Source: Apostichopus japonicus (lineage: Eukaryota > Echinodermata > Holothuroidea > Aspidochirotida > Stichopodidae). From it: a stretch of DNA of 64,000 bases. The stretch covers positions 1,500,501 to 1,564,500 of the forward strand of contig NC_092576.1 of assembly GCF_037975245.1 (NCBI RefSeq), in the 5' to 3' direction. Both the position numbers and the translations under genes were made by a program. Of the stretch, positions 6,665-42,708 are shown piece by piece. How positions within the stretch are numbered: the first letter of the stretch is position 1; each line of letters starts with the position of its first letter. Under the pieces are notes generated by a model. It saw only the letters and a list, made by a program, of their open reading frames with translations. It was not told the origin of the DNA and made no database searches.

Positions 6665-6838
6665 CTGTTTTCAGAAAAGTCAACCAAGATATAACCTGGG
6701 CACAAAAATCAAACAACTAAATCACTGATCCGCTCTCAACCCCAGTCCCCTAACATCGAGGCTGTAACTGTGTCATCATCCTCAAGTGTTTATCACGATA
6801 CCCCTAGAAAGAACAGATACTGCACATGATCTTTTCAA
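6665..6838 (-). mobile_element. U2 snRNA-headed SINE, copy A (5'-truncated)
   Basis: Read on the minus strand, 6835-6811 gives AGATCATGTGCAGTATCTG followed by TTCTTT, matching nucleotides about 24-47 of U2 snRNA. It then continues with the family body: AGGGGTATCGTGATA, GATGATGACACAGT, a hairpin region ending AGGGGACTGGGG, GAGAGCGGATCAGT, ATTTTTGTGCCCAGG and a final ACTTTTCTGAAAA snap-back. The ATTTTTG before the last stem looks like an Sm-type site, although other copies lack it. The copy begins where copy B ends. Confidence 0.8.
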
Positions 6839-7030
6839 GAAAAGTCACCCTGCAGGAAGGAACCTAAGAATTAAAAGCCCAACAATGAACCGACTGATCC
6901 GCTCTCATCACCAGTCCCCTTGCATGGAGACTGTGACTGTGTGATCATCGTCAGCTGTATATCACGGTTCCCCTACAAGGCGAATATTATGCTACACATG
7001 ATCTCAGCCAAAAGGCCGCGTACGGCTTAC
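6839..7030 (-). mobile_element. U2 snRNA-headed SINE, copy B
   Basis: On the minus strand, 7022-6988 reads CGCGGCCTTTTGGCTGAGATC, then ATGTGTAGCAT, matching U2 snRNA nucleotides about 9-38. The body follows: AGGGGAACCGTGATATACA, CTGACGATGATCACACAGT, CACAGTCTCCATGCAAGGGG, GAGAGCGGATCAGTCGG, then a GTTCCTTCCTGCAGG stem region and GGTGACTTTTC. It is the longest copy between head and body. Copy A follows it tail-to-head on the same strand. The position equivalent to U2 A30 is T, as in copies A and C. Confidence 0.85.
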
Positions 7031-17879: not shown

Positions 17880-19885
17880 CCCAGGAAAATATTTACCTCA
17901 AATTTACCGCGGTAACATACCACACTTTTACCACGGTAAACCGGGGTAAAACCGCGGTAAATCTGTTGTACATTACCGCGGTGTTTTGGCCCTATGGATG
18001 CGGTTAACTGCGGTTTACCGCAGTAAATTATCACAAATTTACCTTGGTTTTACCTCGCTTTTACCCCAATTTTACCGCAATTAACCTTGGTGTTACCATC
18101 ATGACTTTTACCGCGCTTTTACTACACTTTTACCACGCTTTTACTCTAAATTTACCACAGTTTTACCGTTCTTTTACCCCAATTTTACCGTATATTTACC
18201 ACGCTTTTTCCTTAGTTTTACCTCAATTTACCATACTTTTAACACGCTTTTATCATTGCTTACCGTTCTTTTACCCCAATTTTACCATGGTTTTACCGTA
18301 GATTTAATTTACTACGCTTCTACCTTAGTTTTACCTCAGTTTACCATGATTTTACACTAATTGTAGGACAGTTTTACCTCACATTGAGCATGATTTTGTC
18401 CTAATTTCAATCAGCATGTACACCATATATTTCTTTGAATTTCACCCATCAGTGTACTGTATCATAATTTGGCTATATGCCTTTACCCTTATTGTAATGG
18501 TTATATGCCTGTAAGTTCACAGTTGTAGCATGCAACAGTTTTTAATTCATCAAATCCATGGAGGTTTCATACATAAAAAAGCTTTGTTGAATTTCAACTA
18601 CCCTAGCTGGTATGACTCCTGACGCTCTTCTTTTGACATAATTGGTAGTCCAGACTGGACTTTTGAACTCCTGTTGTCCTCAAAGACTTGGTTTAAATGA
18701 AGAGGGTACTCTGATGATTGAGATGAAATTTACAAGTAGTTGGTAGAAGTGAGGAGTTTACCCCTGTTCGACCTCGCAAGAGGTCCTGCGGAAGTAGTGG
18801 GTCAAATCAAATAAAAGGAGTTTACCCCTGTTCGACATCGCAAGAGGTCCTACGGGGGATAATATTTAAATTTTGTAGAATAGACACTTTTTTCCACCCA
18901 GATACATAGATTTGTCATGTCATTTAATGGACCTGACAGAAAATACCCAAATCTGAGGACACTGATTGGTCAATTTTCGTGTGCTACAGTGTTGAGGCAC
19001 AGAAGCTATCCCTTATGTGTGCTAGTTTACATAGTTCTTAATTTTCATTTTAAAGGCTTTTAGGTTCTCCCTCATGATGAAAAAAGAATTAATTGTTATC
19101 TCCTCTCAAATTTATCAAGGATTCCATGAAGGAATTCTCTATGTATCTATCCACTGCTTGTTTTTTTTTATAGGAAAAGAGATGCAAAATCATTGAAAAA
19201 TTGCTGTAAATGTACCATCATGTTTCATAGTGTGACCCATTTATGTTCTACTGTGGTAAAATCATGGTACAATTATGGTAAATTTACCATAGTATAATTG
19301 CACCGTATAGTTTTACCCTTTTTTGACTGTGTTTAATCATTGCACAATTGTAAGAATTTCACCTATGTAGTATATGTACCATATAAATTTACCCTACTTT
19401 TACTCCAGTAATATCATGGTAAAACTGCGGTAAATTCACCGTAGTAAAGGTACCACACTTTTACCCTACTTTTACCGCGGTAATACCATGGTAAAACTGC
19501 GGTAAATTTACCGTAGTAAATGTACCACACTTTTACCCTACTTTTACCGCTGTCATACAATGGTAAAACTGCGGTAAATTTACCGTAGTAAATGTACCAC
19601 ACTTTTACCGCGGTGATACCATGGTAAAACCGTGGTTAATTTACCGTAGTAAATGTACCGCACTTTACCCTACTTATACCGCGGTAATACCATGGTAAAA
19701 CTGCGGTAAATTTGCCGCAGTAAATGTACCGCACTTTTACCCTACTTATACCGCGGTATACAATGGTGAAACTGCGGTAAACGTACCGCGGTTGATTTTA
19801 CCACAATTTTACCACACATTTACCCTATTTACCACACATTTACCATAGTTTACAGCGGTAAAATTAGGGTACATTTTTTGCTGGG
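17880..19885. mobile_element. TTTACCG-rich TIR element, 2.0 kb, non-autonomous
   Basis: The ends are CCCAGGAAAATATTTACC (left) and, inverted, CCCAGCAAAAAATGTACC (right). Both terminal zones (17880-18370, 19240-19885) are arrays of TTTACC motifs, many as the palindrome TTTACCGCGGTAAA. The paralogous R1 copy at 34075-34090 reads CATTTAGGTCCC without interruption. Here CATTTAG lies on the left and AGGTCCC on the right, giving a 2 bp AG duplication. CCCAGCAAA ends with 2-3 bp duplications fit CACTA/EnSpm-like elements of animals. The centre has no transposase; it holds two copies of a 'GAGTTTACCCCTGTTCGAC...CGCAAGAGGTCCT' block (18756-18855). Confidence 0.8.
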
Positions 19886-29536: not shown

Positions 29537-30705
29537 ACTACAATTTTTTTTTCAATCTTTCCCTATTATATGAAGCGTCGCAATGCAGTTAAATAACTTC
29601 CTAAAGCTATTGTATTGATATCATAATCCGGTAGGTTATGTGAACTTTTTTCTGTGAAATACGGTTATCGGATTTCTTTAAATTTGTAGGTGGACTATTC
29701 CATGAGAATGGCTTGCAACTAAGGCAAGTAAACACAATCTCGACAGCTTCAACAGTGACTAAAACTGACTTTGTCTAGTCACTGTAGTTAGGCTATTGCT
29801 AAACACGGGGGATTCCCCTAATAAAGGGGTCATGACGTCATTCAAAGAGTACAACCATACAATTGAGCTTTACCCCCATACTTTAGGTCGTAAATAAAAC
29901 CACAAACGTAAATAATAAGGTCGCTTATGAAACACTAGACGTAATGATCACACAAACAGCATTAACTTATACCATCCATCCTAACAATAAAACAGAAAAT
30001 AGTAATACAAAATCTTGCTCATGGAAGTAATTTAAAATATATAATAAAACAAAAATTGCTAGCAAACAGCTTCTCCAATAAAGAGCCTGTGCAAGAGAAT
30101 GTGTAAAAGTAAGTGGGCCTGACGTTTCGTTCCAAGCAGGATCTTGTTTAGGGGCTGAAAGGCTGAATTGATGTCATTTGAAATAAACATCCCGGAGTTA
30201 TGTAAGGTTGATTAAATCTCAACTAGAGAAATAGTGAATATATTAACTAGGAATTTTGGAGATTAGCAATTAACTATACGACATTATCTTGATAAGGATC
30301 ATATTTATACTATATAGGTATGCATGGCACCTTGTACGCAAACACACAATTTCAAGTGAAACCGAACAGTCATGTGATCGAAGACGGTAACTTATTGAAT
30401 CTTGTACAATGACATATGAACGAAGTTTGTAATGTGTTTATCCTATTATAGATGAGTATATACTAGAGGCAGGTGTACACGCGCCTCCTCTCCACACAGC
30501 TTGTAAAGTAAACATCGATAAAAAAAATAGACGGAAATATTGAAGCTTTTGTTGAACAAACATCTAATACAAACTTCGAAATGTTGTTGATTGATTGCGG
30601 CGAAAATCACGGCTAATTTATTTTATGGCTCGAACAAGATTTGCGACACCCTTTATTCTGAGACCCCTTTTGGGTCACAACCCACACTTTGTTAGCCGCA
30701 AAATA
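29537..30705 (+). repeat. R2 segment, unit 2, right part
   Basis: It continues R2 at GACTACAATTTTT and runs collinearly with 9100-10306 and 38375-39560, with few differences, including CATGACGTCATTCA and the hAT-like end. It ends at TTAGCCGC. Confidence 0.85.
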
Positions 30706-30796
30706 GGCTAAAATACCTTTGCTAAGACTATGACTACACCGGTAGTCATAATCTTAGAAATGTGTACGTTTGCAGGTAAAAAAAGGTATATTAGCT
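30706..30796. mobile_element. Small palindromic MITE-like element, copy 1
   Basis: GGCTAAAATACCTTT and AAAAGGTATATTAGC form the ends. Inside, CTAAGACTATGACTAC pairs with GTAGTCATAATCTTAG around CACCG. The same element is at 39564-39652 at the same position in R2, while R2 copy 1 lacks it. Confidence 0.7.
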
Positions 30797-30811
30797 TTTT
30801 TTTAAAGAATG

Positions 30812-30948
30812 GTGATACACACCTGACGATGATCACACAGTCACAGTCCCGATGCAAGGGGACTGGGGTTAGAAGCGGATCAGTCGTTCAGTAGTTTGGT
30901 TTTCGTGCCCAGGTTCTTTCCTGGGCGACTTTTTCTTAAAAAGTACTT
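30812..30948 (+). mobile_element. U2-headed SINE family, copy D (head missing)
   Basis: It starts within the body at GGTGATACACACCTGACG and continues GATGATCACACAGTCACAG, a stem CAGTCCC/GGGGACTG, GGTTAGAAGCGGATCAGTCG, a stem GCCCAGG/CCTGGGC, and the perfect snap-back ACTTTTT-CTT-AAAAAGT. It shares its 3' flank with copy C, so it is a duplicate of that insertion rather than a new one. The U2 part is lost at the junction with R2/MITE sequence. Confidence 0.8.
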
Positions 30949-32047
30949 TTAGCTCAAATTGCCAATGTAGGTAAAACCCTAGGTTGATAGAATTCCCCCA
31001 TCTTTTAAGACAACTAAAATGTAAAATGACCAACATTGGGTATATTGACCAATCTGTACGTGTCACAATCTGTGTACTTTAACTTGATTTTTTTTTATAT
31101 ATTCAAACAAATCGTAATGAATATTGTATGTACACTACTAGAACGGTAACCACTCAATAGATCAAAAAAGTACCATCGATTATTAAAATCAGGTGACTGA
31201 CAATCAGTATGCGATATCCCAGCTTAAATGCAATAATTAATTCAATTATAAATCTTAATTAACGTAGTTATTACCATATGAGTAAATACATGAAAACTGT
31301 GTGATTGACTACGATTTGAATTATTTTAATAATTCACAGTGGCAACAAGTTGAGATGTTTGTGATCTCATTTACAGAGATAGTTAAAACGATAAATGCCA
31401 TCAGATGAAAACCAAACTTGACAAAGTAGTAAATCGTTAAAAAACATGTTAAATATAGTACATGTCTTTTCTGCAGAATTAGATAATTTTCATTTCACGA
31501 CTAGAAATAACATTTTGATTCCAGTCAAAATAATCAACAACATTGAACAACAGTGATGGAAAGAAATGTGTTGAATACCTGAATATATTGACACCTTGAA
31601 TCTTGGCGAAACCTTGTTTTACATCCATCATAATATTTTGCTTCCATTATATACTAATGAGTATAAACTCAGTCACATTTGCCTTGATTTAACTAAATCA
31701 AGGAATTAAAGATCCTTTTATAATTTTGAATTAGAAATAGCAATGGTTCTAAGGTGATATGTTGGGGTAGTTTGCCACTGTATGGGAGCACTATGCTGAT
31801 GTTGCCAATGAGACATTCGTATCGGTGAATTCAATCGCTGGCCTAGATACTTAAAAAATACTATTGTGCTTTTATCCCTGGAAGTTGGGTGACATCTGCA
31901 GGATTTCGTGTGACTAGAACAAACTAGTCTGATATCTATATATGACTTCATGATTATACAACAACTAGTTAAGATTAACAAACAATAGTCTATTATTTGC
32001 TTTCCTGACGGTGGCAGTTTTTTCTTCTTCTTTTCCAAAAGTTTGTT
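30949..32047 (+). repeat. Flank repeat B, copy 1
   Basis: Collinear with 41176-42290, 45130-46066 and (first about 350 bp) 48909-49257. It is about 95% identical by eye and includes GTACCATCGATTATTAAAATC, GATTGACTACGATTTG and CAGTGATGGAAAGAAATGTG. It is non-coding. It ends where LINE sequence begins. Confidence 0.85.
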
Positions 32048-33060
32048 TTATACTTGTACCGCAGAGTGAATGAAGGTCCTGCCAGTGGAGACTGTCCTCG
32101 AAACTGGTACTGTGAAAGCATGGCCAGGCATCGACAAGCTAGAGCGTGTAGCTCTTCTAGCTACAAACGGTTGTTGTAGCATTGCCTTTAGGTCTGGTGG
32201 GCACGAGTTGGTGTGCATCTTATAGAGAACAGTCGCTGCTGCCACCTGACGTCTTAGGTGAAGAGATGAGATGTTCAACTCAGTTCGTGCTTTCTCCTCA
32301 CTTGTGCCAATAATGCGAAGGGCCTTCTTCTGGATCGAGTCAAGTAGTCCTAAGGTGGTGGGCGAGGCACTCATCCATGAAAGAGAGGCATACTCCATCA
32401 CGCTACGGACCAGAGCCTTGTAGACTGTTGCTCGTCCCCTGATGTCCAATTTGTTGGCAACTTTCCTCAGGGCACCCAGTTTCTGTCCAGCTCTAGATGA
32501 TGCCTTGGAGATGTGTTTTGCCCAGGTCAGCTTGCTGTCAATTGTGACTCCCAGAATCTCCAGCTCCTCTTTTTCGGCCAGTTTGGAGTTGCCAAACATA
32601 AGATCCAGCTTAGTAGGGTTTCTCTTCCTTGAGATTGTCAGTGCCTTGCATTTTGATGGCTCAAATGTCACCTTCCATTTGACTGCCCAGATCCTCATTC
32701 GCTCTAGGTCTCTGTTTAAGCTTGCTGTTACCGCCTTGGGATCATCTCTTGATGAGATCTCACAGTACAGAGTAGAGTCATCTGCATAGAGGTAGAGGTT
32801 GTTTTCACATTCGTCGCCCAGATCGTCGATGAACACAGAGAACAGAAGTGGTCCCAGTATTGGGGCACTGACGCATTGATGGAGGAAGTACTTGATGACT
32901 GTCCAGATAAGACAACTTTGATGGATCTGTCTGCGAGGTAGCTCCTGATCCAAGTGAGAAGACTGCCTGAGACTCCTTTTGCCTTAAGTTTGGAGCAGAG
33001 ACCATTGTGCCACACCTTGTCAAATGCATCATTGATGTCCAGGGCAATAAGTCGCACCTC
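32048..33060 (-). pseudogene. Non-LTR retrotransposon RT, 5'-truncated and frameshifted
   Basis: On the minus strand the reading starts exactly at RT motif A (ALDINDAFDKVWH). It continues with LKAKGVSGSLLTWIRSYLAD and NASVPQ, then a small deletion shifts frame inside the VPQG box, and the second frame (301 codons from 32953) resumes at ILGPLLFSVFIDDLG. YADDS follows at about 32776-32790, then the thumb region (LGVTIDSKLTWAKHI; YKALVRSVMEYASLSW; IQKKALRIIG) to a stop at about 32050. All of the endonuclease and the RT fingers are missing. Jockey/CR1-like group by motif style. It is dead because of truncation and the frameshift. Confidence 0.9.
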
Positions 33061-38017: not shown

Positions 38018-39563
38018 GCAGTGAAGGCCCGCGCTAATATACCTAAGTCTGGCATTTTTCACACGGGTTACTTTTGGGGGGAGACCAGTGTTCTTATATA
38101 CCATGATATTGTTCCTGAATGCCAACATGTTGAACGATAAAATTGCAAAGACGTACGTAAAAAAAAGAACAGATTCCAGCAAAAACAGCGTGTCTACCTG
38201 AGAGACAATTTTTTTAAATTATTCTTTGTAGCTGTGCTTATTTTCGAGACGGTTTCTTTTGTTAATATCTTGATAGAATTGTTTCGTCAATGTTTTTAAT
38301 GCTACAAAAACTGTTTTAGATGAATATTCATGAGTTGATTCCATTAAGGTTTTATGATTATAACAACCTGTTTGCATTCTTCCCCTATCATATGAAGAGC
38401 CATAATGCAGTTTTTACTTACTAAACCTATCGCATTGATATAATTACAAGGTCGGTTATGTGACCATTTTTGTGATATACGGTAACAAAGTTCCTTTAAT
38501 TGGTAAGTGGACTGTTCCAAGGTAATGCGCAATAGCATGTACTAAGGCAAGTAAGTAAACATTATGTTGACAGCTTCATCAGTAACGAGAACTGACTTTG
38601 TCTAGTCATTGTAGTTAGGCTATTGCTAAACACGGGAATTCCCCTAATGAAAGAGATCATGACGTCATTCATAGAGTATAACCAGACATTTGAGCTTTAC
38701 ACCATTGTTGAGGTAGTGTATAAAACCGCAAACGTAAATAATAAGGTCGCTTATGAAACATTAGACGTGATGATCACACGAACAGCATTAAATTAAACCA
38801 TCCACTCTATCAATAAAACAGAAAATAGCAATACAAAATCTTGCTAATTGAGGTAATTTTAAAATATATAATAAAACAAAAATTGCTAGCAAACAGCTTC
38901 TCCAATAAAGAGCCTGTGCAAGAGAATGTGTAAAAGTAAGTGGACCTGACGTTTCGTTCCAAGCAGGATCTTGTTTAGGGGCTAAAAAGGCTGAATTGAT
39001 GTCATTTGAAATAAACATCCCGGAGTTCTGTAAGGTTGATTAAATCTCAGCTAGAGAAATAGTGAATATGTTTACTAGGAATTTTTGACATTATCAATTA
39101 ACTATACGACATTGTCTTGATAAGGATCATATTTAAACTATATAGGTATGCATGGCACCTTGTACGCAAACACACAATTTCAAGTGAAACTCAACAGTCA
39201 GGTGATCGAAGACGGTAACTTATTGAATCTTGTACACTGACATGTGAACGAAGTTATGTAATGTGTTTATCCTATTATAGATGAGTATATACTATAGGCA
39301 TGTGTACACGCGCCTCCTCTTCGCACAGTCTTTTAATAATAATATACAGCTTGTAAAGTAAACATCGATAAAAAATAGACGGAAATATTGAAGCTTTTGT
39401 TGAACAAACATCTAATAAAAACTTCGAAATGTTGTTGGTTGATCGCGACGAAAATAACGGCTAATTGATTTGATGGTTCGAACAGGATTTGCGACACCCC
39501 CTTTTTTTTTTTGGAGGCCCACTTAATTTGGGTCACAACCCACACTTTGGCAGCCGCAAAATA
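38018..39563 (+). repeat. R2 segment, copy 3
   Basis: Collinear with 8737-10306 and 29537-30705 throughout. It shares with unit 2, but not unit 1, the following MITE-like palindrome, so units 2 and 3 are closer relatives. Confidence 0.85.
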
Positions 39564-39652
39564 GGCTAAAATACCTTTACTAAGACTATGACTACACCAG
39601 TAGTCATAATCTTAGAAATGTGTACGTTTGCAGGTAAAAAAGGTATATTAGC
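39564..39652. mobile_element. Small palindromic MITE-like element, copy 2
   Basis: Same sequence and same position relative to R2 as 30706-30796, with a few substitutions (CAGTAGTC for CGGTAGTC). Confidence 0.7.
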
Positions 39653-40986
39653 TTCTTTTTTTTTAAGATGATTTTTTTTTTTACTTGAGGTCAATCGAAA
39701 TTCAGATCTTTTTTTTAAAAATATAAAAGCTGGAGTGAACAATAGCCCATGAAGATTGACAAGTCAAGAGCTAATATAGGCCGTGAGGCTTAGGAACTAC
39801 TGACGGGTGGGGGCTGCTGTCCCCCTCACCCCAGAAGCACACCTATAAGCAGTGCGGTGAAAGGTATGCACTATACATGACCTAAACTGAAAGCATCCAA
39901 AGATACACTACTGATACAGTAGATCTATTATGGGTACCAATAAACATCTGTTGGAAGAATACATTACCAGTATATATTTTGGTAGACAATCTGAAATATG
40001 CCAACAAAATAAAAACAAACATCTCACAACTGGAATAATGATAAACTGGATGTAAGATAATGTTATCGAACTCCAAACCTTTAACTTTTTAATCATGACG
40101 CACATGATTGTGACATCACGGCAGCCTACACTTCAAGGCTTCTTTACGGCAAATGTTAATTGAGTTGATAACATACCCAATTCGTATGTATTCTAAAATG
40201 CTTTGTCCGAAACAAGTCAACTTTTAACAGCTTAACCAACTTAATTGCCCCCAAAAAATTGATATCTTGGTCAGAGATTTTGTGCATTTTACTTGTTTGG
40301 GGAAACATTTCATACCACGTTGATTAGTGAATTACGTACCCAATTTGGGGGAAAGTCATAATGCATAACACTGTGCAGATGCCTGATGGTTAAACCTACT
40401 AGTGTGTTGAAATAAATCTTAGTCGGTGCACTCTAAAAAGCAACTGGCCATCTACAATTCATCGGATTTGACAATACAGTATACCCAGCTTATTCTATGT
40501 TCCATATCAGGAATAAAACCTCAATTTTTCAAGAATTAACATTGAGAAAAGCCTGGTCCAGTTTTTTAGCCAATGTATTCGGATAGACTGAAGCTTAGTT
40601 TGCATACGTTATTGTTTGAGGAATATGTAGCTGATTTTTCTAATAGAAGGTATCGTGCCTATAAGTTATCACCTGTCTGCAACTTTTCGTGGAAGAAGAG
40701 GGCAATGTACTTGGACATTGAGTGTTTGTTTATCTGTTTGTTTTATGCATTTTACTGGCAAACAGATTTCATTGATATCTGAAACTATGTGGATCAACCA
40801 CTTTTGAAGCCAAAATTTCTTCATCTTTCTTTCGTATTTTGTTTCTTCTAGGGCCCCAAACATTACAAAACCTGTTTCTCCTTCTTCAGAACAAGACAAA
40901 GGACAGAAAAACAGGTACCGGAACTAAGTTTAAAAAAAAATATTACAAGGGAAATAGAAGAACAGCAATAAAGTATCGCAGTTTAC
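39653..40986. other. Non-coding stretch, no recognised gene
   Basis: Poly-T runs near 39660-39710, then mixed sequence. Short frames such as 40573-40782 have no family resemblance. It forms the 5' flank of SINE copy C. Confidence 0.4.
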
Positions 40987-41187
40987 ACTTTTAGCTCACT
41001 TTTATCGCTTCTCGGCTTTTTGGCTAAGATCATGTGTAGTATCTGTTCTTTCAGGGAGGATGATCACACAGTCACAGTCCCGATGCAAGGGGACTGGGGT
41101 TAGAAGCGGATTAGTCGTTCAGTAGTTTGGTTTTCGTGTCCAGGTTCTTTCCTGGGCGACTTTTTCTTAAAAAGTACTTTTAGCTCA
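40987..41187 (+). mobile_element. U2 snRNA-headed SINE, copy C, with target-site duplication
   Basis: 41004-41052 matches the first 47 or so nucleotides of U2 snRNA (ATCGCTTCTCGG start, GGCTAAGATCA, GTGTAGTATCTGTTCTT, including the branch-point-pairing GTAGTA) with about two changes, one of them A30 to T. The U2 match then stops and the SINE body follows at GATGATCACACAGTCACAG after loss of about 25 bp seen in copies A and B. The body ends ACTTTTTCTTAAAAAGT at 41175. ACTTTTAGCTCA flanks it directly at 40987-40998 and 41176-41187, a 12 bp target-site duplication typical of LINE-machinery retroposition; five extra bases (CTTTT) lie before the U2 start. Confidence 0.9.
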
Positions 41188-42708
41188 AATTGCCAATGTA
41201 GGTTAGGTTGATAGAATTCCCCCATCTTTTTTTAGAAAACTTATATGTAAAATGACCAACAAATTGGGTATATTGACCAATCTGTACGTGTCACAATCTG
41301 TGTACTTTAACTTGATTTTTTTTATTTTTTATATATTCAAACAAATCGTAACGAATATTGTATGTACACTACTACAACGATAACCACTCAATAGATCAAA
41401 AAAGTACCATCGATTATTAAAATCAGGTGACTGACAATCAGTATGCGATATCCCAGCTTAAATGCAATAATTAATTCAATTGTAAATCTTAATTAACGTA
41501 GTAATTACCATATGAGTAAATACACGAAAACTGTGTGATTGACTACGATTTGAATTATTTTAATAATTCACAGTGGCAACAAGTTGAGATGTTTGTGATT
41601 TCATTTACAGAGATAGTTAAAACGATAAATGCCATAAGATGAAAACCAAACTTGACAAAGTAGTAAGTCGTTAAAAATCATGTTAAATATAGTACATGTC
41701 TTTTCTGCAGAACACGCAGAATTAGATAATTTTCATTTCACGACTAGAAATAACATTTTGATTCCAGTCAAAATAATCAACAACATTGAACAACAGTGAT
41801 GGAAAGAAATGTGTTGAATACCTGAATATATTGACACCTTGAATCTTGGCGAAACCTTGTTTTACATCCATCATAATATTTTGCTTCCACTATATACTAA
41901 TGAGTATAAACTCAGTCACATTTGCCTTTAACTAAATCAAGGAATTAAAGATCCTTTATAATTTTGAATTAGAAATGGCAATGGTTCTAAGGTGATATGT
42001 TGGCGTAGTTTGCCGCTGTATGGGAACACTCTGCTGATGTTGCCAATGAGACATTCGTATCGGTGAATTCAATCGCTGGCCTAGATACTTAAAATATACT
42101 ATTGTGCTTTTATCCCTGGAAGTTGGGTGACATCTGCAGGATTTCTTGTGAATAGAACAAACTGATATTTACCCATATGACTTCATGATTATACATCAAC
42201 TAGTTAAGATTAACAAACAATAGTCTATTGTTTGCTTTCCTGACGGTAGCAGTTTTTTCTTCTTCTTTTCCAATAGTTTGTTTCCTCTCCTTTTCCTGCT
42301 TTCCCCTCCTTAATTCTTCTTCTCTTCGTCTTGGAGAACACTTGTCTTGAAGCAGTATTTAGCATTAAGCATGCATTTGATCATCTGTTTCCATATGTTC
42401 TTATGACATGTTAAATAAATGAGTAACTGCTGGTTCAATTGTACAATGGCAATGATGCCAAGCTGCCACTTTTTCAGCATTGTCAGTTTTCACATATGTA
42501 TTCCAAAACTCAAACAGGAAAGTTTTAGGCTTGACTTTTTGTCCTTACTTTAATATTAATCTTGGCTATAATCATGCTAAAGAAATGCCTTTTCATGAGA
42601 TATTATGGTACCTAATAGCATAAAACAGGTACCATCATCCGAATGGAAAAGGCTGCTTTGTTGCTCTGCGTGTTCAATGATCTGGGCCTTCTCTTTCTTT
42701 TGCCGCAG

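What the first reader, a model, noticed from the sequence alone, without database searches (positions are those of the whole stretch)
40987..41187. A SINE whose head is the 5' end of U2 snRNA, in an invertebrate-like genome
Seen: 41004-41052 matches U2 snRNA from its first base for about 47 nt, then switches abruptly to a structured non-U2 body of about 130 nt that recurs at 6665-7030 and 30812-30948. Three copies carry U2 sequence, and all share T where U2 has A30 (GATCATGTG), so they come from one chimeric source and are not separate U2 pseudogenes. Known: most SINE heads derive from tRNA, 7SL or 5S rRNA; U1/U2-headed SINEs (SINEU) have been reported from crocodilians. A U2-headed family here would be a separate origin. 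Inference: the element uses a Pol II-type snRNA head rather than an internal Pol III promoter.
Basis: partly seen in the sequence, partly recalled or inferred. Interest (0 to 1): 0.88.

Follow-up and report, generated by a model that had tools for sequence, protein, structure and literature searches.

The report
U2-headed SINE born inside U2 genes
A short jumping element in an animal genome (probably an echinoderm) carries the first ~50 bases of the splicing RNA U2, and the same genome suggests how it got them: the element inserts into U2 genes, apparently borrows their promoter, and then scatters through the genome with the front of U2 attached.

Summary
Window 41004-41054 is the 5' end of the host's own U2 snRNA joined to a foreign body, flanked by a 12-bp target-site duplication. 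The head occurs at 1,511 genomic places (<=2 mismatches; reversed control 0; true U2 genes included). All 30 loci read that were chosen by exact head alone run into the same body.

The source of the head was not expected. Seven U2 genes (six in the C16 array, one on C20) are interrupted by this body, all at one site, with 4-16 nt of U2 duplicated. Keno-like APE/RT LINEs sit at the same site in the same array. The U2 promoter is intact (299-300/300) above the four resident copies where it is held.

Best model: U2-resident copies are transcribed from the U2 promoter as U2-body chimeras, and Keno-like machinery inserts them into U2 genes and, leakily, at ATCT-like sites elsewhere, leaving "U2-headed SINEs". 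There are no RNA data; transcription, mastership and the helper LINE are inferred. New variant of known kinds.

The parts
40987..40998 (+). left copy of the 12-bp target-site duplication ACTTTTAGCTCA
40999..41003 (+). five extra bases (CTTTT) between duplication and head
41004..41054 (+). U2-derived head = host U2 nt 1-52 with one substitution and one missing T
41055..41174 (+). non-U2 body, ending ...CTTTTTCTTAAAAAG; shorter at its 5' end than in most other copies read
41161..41165 (+). T5 run before the 3' end, inside a predicted terminal hairpin
41175..41175 (+). T after AAAAAG not found in the target; equals U2 T37
41176..41187 (+). right copy of the target-site duplication
30808..30943 (+). 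headless body: the same insertion in another copy of the surrounding larger repeat
6831..7019 (-). older copy with a 5'-truncated U2 head, first of a head-to-tail pair
6668..6842 (-). second copy of the pair, head from about U2 nt 25

Best explanation
A non-autonomous, SINE-like retroposon whose home is the U2 snRNA gene. SHOWN by sequence: its body interrupts seven U2 genes at one site (U2 resumes at nt 37, or at nt 39 if the terminal TA belongs to the element), with 4-16 nt of U2 repeated on the 5' side, leaving the U2 promoter and about U2 nt 1-40/52 upstream; Keno-like LINEs occupy the same site in the same array; dispersed copies start at U2 +1 or are truncated within the head, carry the same body and mostly have TSDs. 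INFERRED: such a gene is transcribed by Pol II from the U2 promoter into U2(5')-body-U2(3') RNA. A Keno-like reverse transcriptase starts at the body's 3' end, with the nicked target pairing to the UAUCU of U2 that follows, and copies back to U2 +1. In a U2 gene this makes a new resident copy; at off-target sites with an ATCT-like core it leaves a 'U2-headed SINE'. Dispersed copies have no U2 promoter, so the residents would be the masters, and heads are captured by insertion into U2, which would explain the several junctions.
For: 7 of 7 AAAAAG-type interrupted U2 sites found genome-wide were read and hold the body, 8 insertions in all; they include a headless truncated body flanked by TATCTGTTCTTTTCAG on both sides (L094) and two stacked bodies in one gene (L095). 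U2 promoter 300 bp identical 300, 300, 300 and 299 of 300 for the 4 residents where it is held. LINE A and B at the same site, ORF2 with Exo_endo_phos + RVT_1. The four residents have identical 116-nt bodies, and 5 of 63 other copies compared are identical to them. Head ends (nt 45-52) fall in the U2 stretch that insertion duplicates (37-52). Off-target sites: A 28/30, T 18/30, C 16/30, T 19/30 at the positions of U2 A38 T39 C40 T41, with no preference upstream. Bases after AAAAG not from the target match U2 37-39 in 15 of 17 copies that have any.
Against: No RNA data. The SINE tail has no sequence match in LINE A or B, so the helper is unproved. LINE B shows no clear dispersal (exact 5' ends 6 of 6 and exact 3' ends 12 of 12 on C16 at or near the array), whereas the SINE is mostly off target. 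Extra T/TA/TAT could be the element's own 3' end. No dispersed copy with a longer U2 3' piece was seen. Only 5 of 63 copies equal the present residents; other lineages need earlier residents. One resident 5' junction repeats only 4 nt of U2 (L095), and U2 G at register +5 is not favoured at off-target sites (3/30).
Confidence: 0.76

Rival explanations
1. A conventional SINE: dispersed copies are transcribed by an internal Pol III or a read-through promoter, another LINE with no U2 preference moves it, and the U2-resident copies are incidental insertions.
For: By subtraction most heads are outside U2 genes. No tail shared with LINE A or B. Box-A-like (TGGCTAAG) and box-B-like (GGTTCTTTCC) words can be picked out by eye (recalled consensus, not scored).
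Against: Seven U2 genes hit at one site, the LINE site, is hard to call incidental. T5 in 21 of 30 and T4 in 25 of 30 copies before the 3' end would stop Pol III. U2's own promoter is external (recalled). U2-like ATCT core at off-target sites.
Confidence: 0.14
2. The head was gained once or a few times by template jumping of reverse transcriptase from the body RNA to U2 snRNA during integration.
For: In vivo template jumps of R2 to small RNAs, U12 snRNA included, are reported in PMC3414825 (abstract and passages seen). Junctions vary.
Against: A jump normally enters the 3' end of the new RNA (recalled), whereas the head here is the 5' 45-52 nt, ending where insertion into U2 duplicates the target; and U2 genes carrying exactly this chimera exist.
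Confidence: 0.06
3. The resident copies are products of recombination or gene conversion between dispersed copies and U2 genes, not insertions.
For: The shared 45-52 nt of head could seed an exchange.
Against: Constant 3' junction at the LINE site, repeated U2 stretches, a headless truncated copy with a 16-nt repeat (L094), and tandem stacking (L095).
Confidence: 0.04

Closest known systems
SINEU (crocodilian SINEs with U1/U2 heads; Kojima 2015, PMC4494074; recalled, paper not held; seen only as a citation)
   Same: short elements with an snRNA 5' head and a non-snRNA body, thought to be moved by a Tx1-group LINE (recalled)
   Different: here copies are found inside U2 genes at the LINE target site, giving a visible source for the head; host not a crocodilian; body relation not tested
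Keno and Utopia, U2-gene-specific non-LTR retrotransposons (PMC4640811: abstract, section 6 and passages seen)
   Same: same insertion site in U2 (the paper gives U2 from nt 39 downstream); LINE A and B here have the Keno type of endonuclease
   Different: the element is ~190 nt, non-coding, and mostly off target; the two LINEs read in full are not Utopia-like (no restriction-like endonuclease; APE instead)
R2 and R2/R1 SIDEs in Drosophila 28S genes (PMC3414825: abstract and passages seen)
   Same: short non-autonomous insertion at the site of a site-specific LINE in a multicopy RNA gene, with expression by co-transcription (inferred here)
   Different: SIDEs are internally deleted R2/R1 whose ribozyme trims host RNA; here the body matches neither LINE A nor LINE B, the host RNA stays as the head, and copies lie genome-wide

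Membership tests
SINE | short, non-coding, many dispersed copies with TSDs | tested here: met
   ~190 nt; 1,511 head matches, U2 genes included; TSD by my rule in 48 of 60 loci, 9 of these repeats of one TSD
SINE | Pol III transcription from an internal promoter | tested here: inconclusive
   T5 before the 3' end in 21 of 30 and external U2 promoter at resident copies speak against; no RNA data
SINE | 3' tail shared with a helper LINE | tested here: not met
   no significant match to LINE A or B; one stray exact hit to the 16-nt tail with changed upstream bases; other LINEs not examined
SINEU | U1/U2-derived 5' head | tested here: met
SINEU | crocodilian SINEU body and Mariner-N4 target | not tested
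   sequences not available; paper not held
SIDE | resident in the multicopy RNA gene at a LINE site | tested here: met
SIDE | derived by internal deletion from the autonomous element | tested here: not met
   no significant similarity to LINE A or B; LINE C seen only at its 3' end
Keno (for LINE A and B) | APE endonuclease + RT, inserted at the U2 site | tested here: met
Keno (for LINE A and B) | RT tree within the Tx1/Keno group | not testable with these tools
   no reference Keno/Tx1 sequences at hand
Utopia (for LINE A and B) | restriction-like endonuclease | tested here: not met
   Exo_endo_phos found instead
U2 retropseudogene | U2 sequence only, without a common foreign body | tested here: not met
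   30 of 30 head-selected loci carry the body

The most novel reading that the evidence does not exclude
A promoterless SINE-like parasite keeps its masters inside U2 gene arrays at the site of Keno-type LINEs, uses the U2 promoter and U2 5' end as its head, and rebuilds that head at each homing event; snRNA-headed SINEs in general would then be off-target progeny of elements resident in snRNA genes.
Probability: 0.55. Interest if true: 0.82.

Novelty: new variant of a known kind. Interest (0 to 1): 0.74.

Why it matters
An snRNA promoter lies outside the transcript, so it is unclear how a SINE could gain an snRNA head and still be transcribed. Here candidate source and progeny sit in one genome: chimeric insertions in U2 genes behind an intact U2 promoter, and a large dispersed family that starts at U2 +1. 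That makes the origin of snRNA heads directly testable, adds a SINE-like element to the known LINE parasites of U2 genes, and shows one U2 array carrying it together with at least two LINE families at a single site.

Tried and rejected
A30T as a chimera signature: rejected, host U2 is T30. Plain U2 pseudogenes: rejected. The 30825 copy as an independent headless insertion: rejected. Body as an internally deleted LINE A or B: no significant match. A LINE sharing the exact 16-nt tail: one stray hit on C21, not followed. Utopia as helper: the two LINEs read in full are APE type. Naming the species from assembly size in print: no paper held the five size strings tried. Rfam at E<=1 names only U2 at the element. 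No U2-gene-resident SINE showed in the listings of paper searches or in the passages read; the library is open-licence only and lacks the SINEU paper.

Counting notes; the printed intact/interrupted counter was wrong (regex fault); I classed the 42 rows by reading them (30 intact, 12 interrupted), and independently gives 30 intact 5' parts. sees only interruptions whose end resembles AAAAAG; 12 of 60 loci gave no TSD by my rule (one is L008, inside U2); 9 were repeats of one TSD; some short ones (7-8 nt) may be chance. TSDs under 9 nt and exact repeats were dropped, leaving 30; L013 and L030 in it are from one tandem cluster, so not fully independent; the match for L013 and L033 is a neighbouring copy in the same locus; the 30 loci are the first listed, all exact heads, on C1 and C2; inexact heads were not read this way. 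An earlier form of this report gave the U2 duplication as 9-16 nt; L095 has one of 4 nt, now corrected, and the odds of the best model and the novel case were lowered slightly for that and for the open helper question.

Full report
WHAT IS THERE. The window lies in a 671.6-Mb assembly of 35 contigs (G000, C16:1500501-1564500). On the 16.1-kb contig C35, COX1 reads Asn at AAA: all 9 AAA codons in the aligned stretch face Asn in a mammalian COX1, and TGA stands for Trp. That fits the echinoderm/flatworm mitochondrial code; that the protein looks like an echinoderm's is recall. At 41004-41054 the window has the 5' end of U2, joined at 41055 to a foreign body ending at 41174, flanked by the 12-bp duplication ACTTTTAGCTCA. 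The copy at 30825 is the same insertion in another copy of a larger repeat. A minus-strand pair at 6668-7019 is older (70-72% to the 41004 copy).

FAMILY. A DNA search of the host genome with 41004-41175 gave 1,694 first-look candidates, of which 40 were scored, with 45 matches. A 26-nt piece of the head (U2 nt 20-45, T30) matches at 751+760 = 1,511 places with <=2 mismatches, and at none when reversed. That count includes the true and the interrupted U2 genes; the Rfam U2 search scored 46 places, all over the cut-off, and the array spans about 0.2 Mb of 645-bp units, so more than a thousand must lie elsewhere (by subtraction, not checked one by one). Thirty loci taken in listing order by the exact head alone (L061-L090, C1 and C2) all run into the same body, one with much of the body deleted. 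By my rule 48 of 60 loci have a TSD, 9 of them repeats of one TSD.

A30T. The host's true U2 genes that I read on C15 (L031, L032) and C16 have GATCATGTG, so T30 is the host's own U2; exact A30 versions occur at 6 scattered places.

SOURCE. One match, L008, lies inside the C16 U2 array. There the body interrupts two U2 genes, followed by U2 at 100% identity. In the 49,051 bases of array then held, 42 U2 3' parts comprised 30 intact, 4 with the SINE body, 3 with LINE A ends and 5 with LINE B/C ends (30 intact 5' parts). A genome-wide pattern for such interruptions (<=3 mismatches) gave 30 places: 7 with AAAAAG, 16 with LINE B/C-type ends and 7 with LINE A-type ends; 29 on C16 and one on C20. 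All 7 of the AAAAAG type were read and hold the body: four; L094, a 5'-truncated body directly behind a LINE B/C-type end with TATCTGTTCTTTTCAG on both sides; L095, two stacked bodies in one gene; and L093 on C20, an old, diverged U2 gene. The stretch of U2 repeated at the 5' side is 16 nt (31134561, L094), 9 nt in most others (one with a mismatch at 31059303), and only 4 nt for the upstream copy of L095. U2 resumes at nt 37, or at nt 39 if the terminal TA belongs to the element; PMC4640811 (abstract, section 6 and passages seen) gives nt 39 for Utopia and the same flank for Keno. The 300 bp upstream of the four residents held is 300, 300, 300 and 299 of 300 identical to the commonest intact unit.

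LINES AT THE SITE. LINE A (L091) has an ORF1 with CCHC knuckles and an open ORF2 frame of 1,157 codons, between U2 nt 1-30 and nt 38. LINE B has open frames of 510 and 1,162 codons and repeats U2 from nt 37 to about 50. Both ORF2 proteins have Exo_endo_phos and RVT_1; the nearest solved relative of LINE B is human L1 ORF2p. The repeat length and AAAG end of LINE B resemble the SINE's more than those of LINE A, so LINE B/C is my guess for the helper. Against this, LINE B 5' ends (6 of 6, exact) and exact 3' ends (12 of 12) are all on C16 at or near the array; a further 24 matches with 2 mismatches lie on other contigs (reversed control 5) and were not followed. The SINE tail has no significant match in LINE A or B. 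The helper remains open.

OFF-TARGET INSERTION. In 30 copies with a TSD of at least 9 nt (median 13.5) the target reads A (28), T (18), C (16), T (19) at the positions of U2 A38 T39 C40 T41 (binomial p 2e-12, 1e-3, 2e-5, 3e-4), with no preference for U2 bases upstream, at nt 37 (13/30, p 0.11) or at nt 42 (3/30). In 17 copies 1-3 bases after AAAAG are not from the target; 15 are T, TA or TAT as in U2 37-39, one is TT and one A. This suggests that the template RNA carried U2 after the body and that the nicked target paired with it. An intrinsic ...GTAT end would look the same. No dispersed copy with a longer U2 3' piece appeared.

RESIDENT AND DISPERSED COPIES. The four residents have identical bodies over 116 nt; the downstream copy in L095 has at least one difference and the C20 copy is diverged. 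Of 63 other copies compared, 5 are identical to that body, and the rest run from 98.3% to 58.4% (the lowest has a deleted body). Heads end at about U2 nt 45 (the commonest class), 49-50, or 52 (window copy, L002, resident 31134561), within the stretch that insertion into U2 repeats. This is as expected if heads are captured by insertion, but later mutation could make some of the variants.

TRANSCRIPTION. T5 before the 3' end in 21 of 30 copies, T4 in 25 of 30, and the U2 promoter at residents favour Pol II. A resident-type body and a piece of the window copy fold more stably than shuffles (z -2.8 and -3.2). There is no RNA evidence.

NOVELTY. U2-specific LINEs (PMC4640811), snRNA-headed SINEs (SINEU; recalled) and rDNA-resident SIDEs (PMC3414825, abstract and passages seen) are known. 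A SINE-like element resident in U2 genes that takes its head from them did not appear in searches. Those ran on an open-licence library that lacks the SINEU paper, so a similar proposal there cannot be excluded. I rate it a new variant of a known kind.

Noticed in passing
host U2 genes, e.g. L031, L032 (C15) and the C16 array 30.97-31.17 Mb: U at U2 nt 30, where the Rfam consensus has A, next to the U6-pairing and branch-site regions; A30 versions of the 26-nt piece exist at only 6 scattered places.
   Followed up: partly
C16:30966000-31168300 (L091, L092 and neighbours): U2 array with at least two APE-type LINE families with open ORF1 and ORF2, and a third type of LINE 3' end, all at one site of U2.
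   Followed up: partly
C12 and C22, e.g. C12:31297940 and C22:23985943: Repeated 3'-end-like word TGAATAAACTTAACAGAAAAG, two mismatches from the LINE B end; possibly a related element outside U2.
   Followed up: no
C29:14745-16086 and C29:30842-31219: Pieces of COX1 with TGA codons on a second contig besides the 16.1-kb contig C35: nuclear copies, or extra mitochondrial sequence in the assembly.
   Followed up: no
C11:20354628-20355219 (L013, L030): Three SINE copies head to tail about 200 bp apart outside U2, with a short shared stretch between them: apparently re-insertion beside an earlier copy.
   Followed up: no
window 39527-39661 + 41055-42283 versus 30669-30803 + 30824-32048: Two copies of a larger repeat, 94-96% identical, which carries the SINE insertion.
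   Followed up: partly
window 19639-19725 and 17934-18066, minus strand: Weak, sub-threshold microRNA-family hairpin matches (E 0.0095 and 0.028), more likely inverted-repeat transposons.
   Followed up: no
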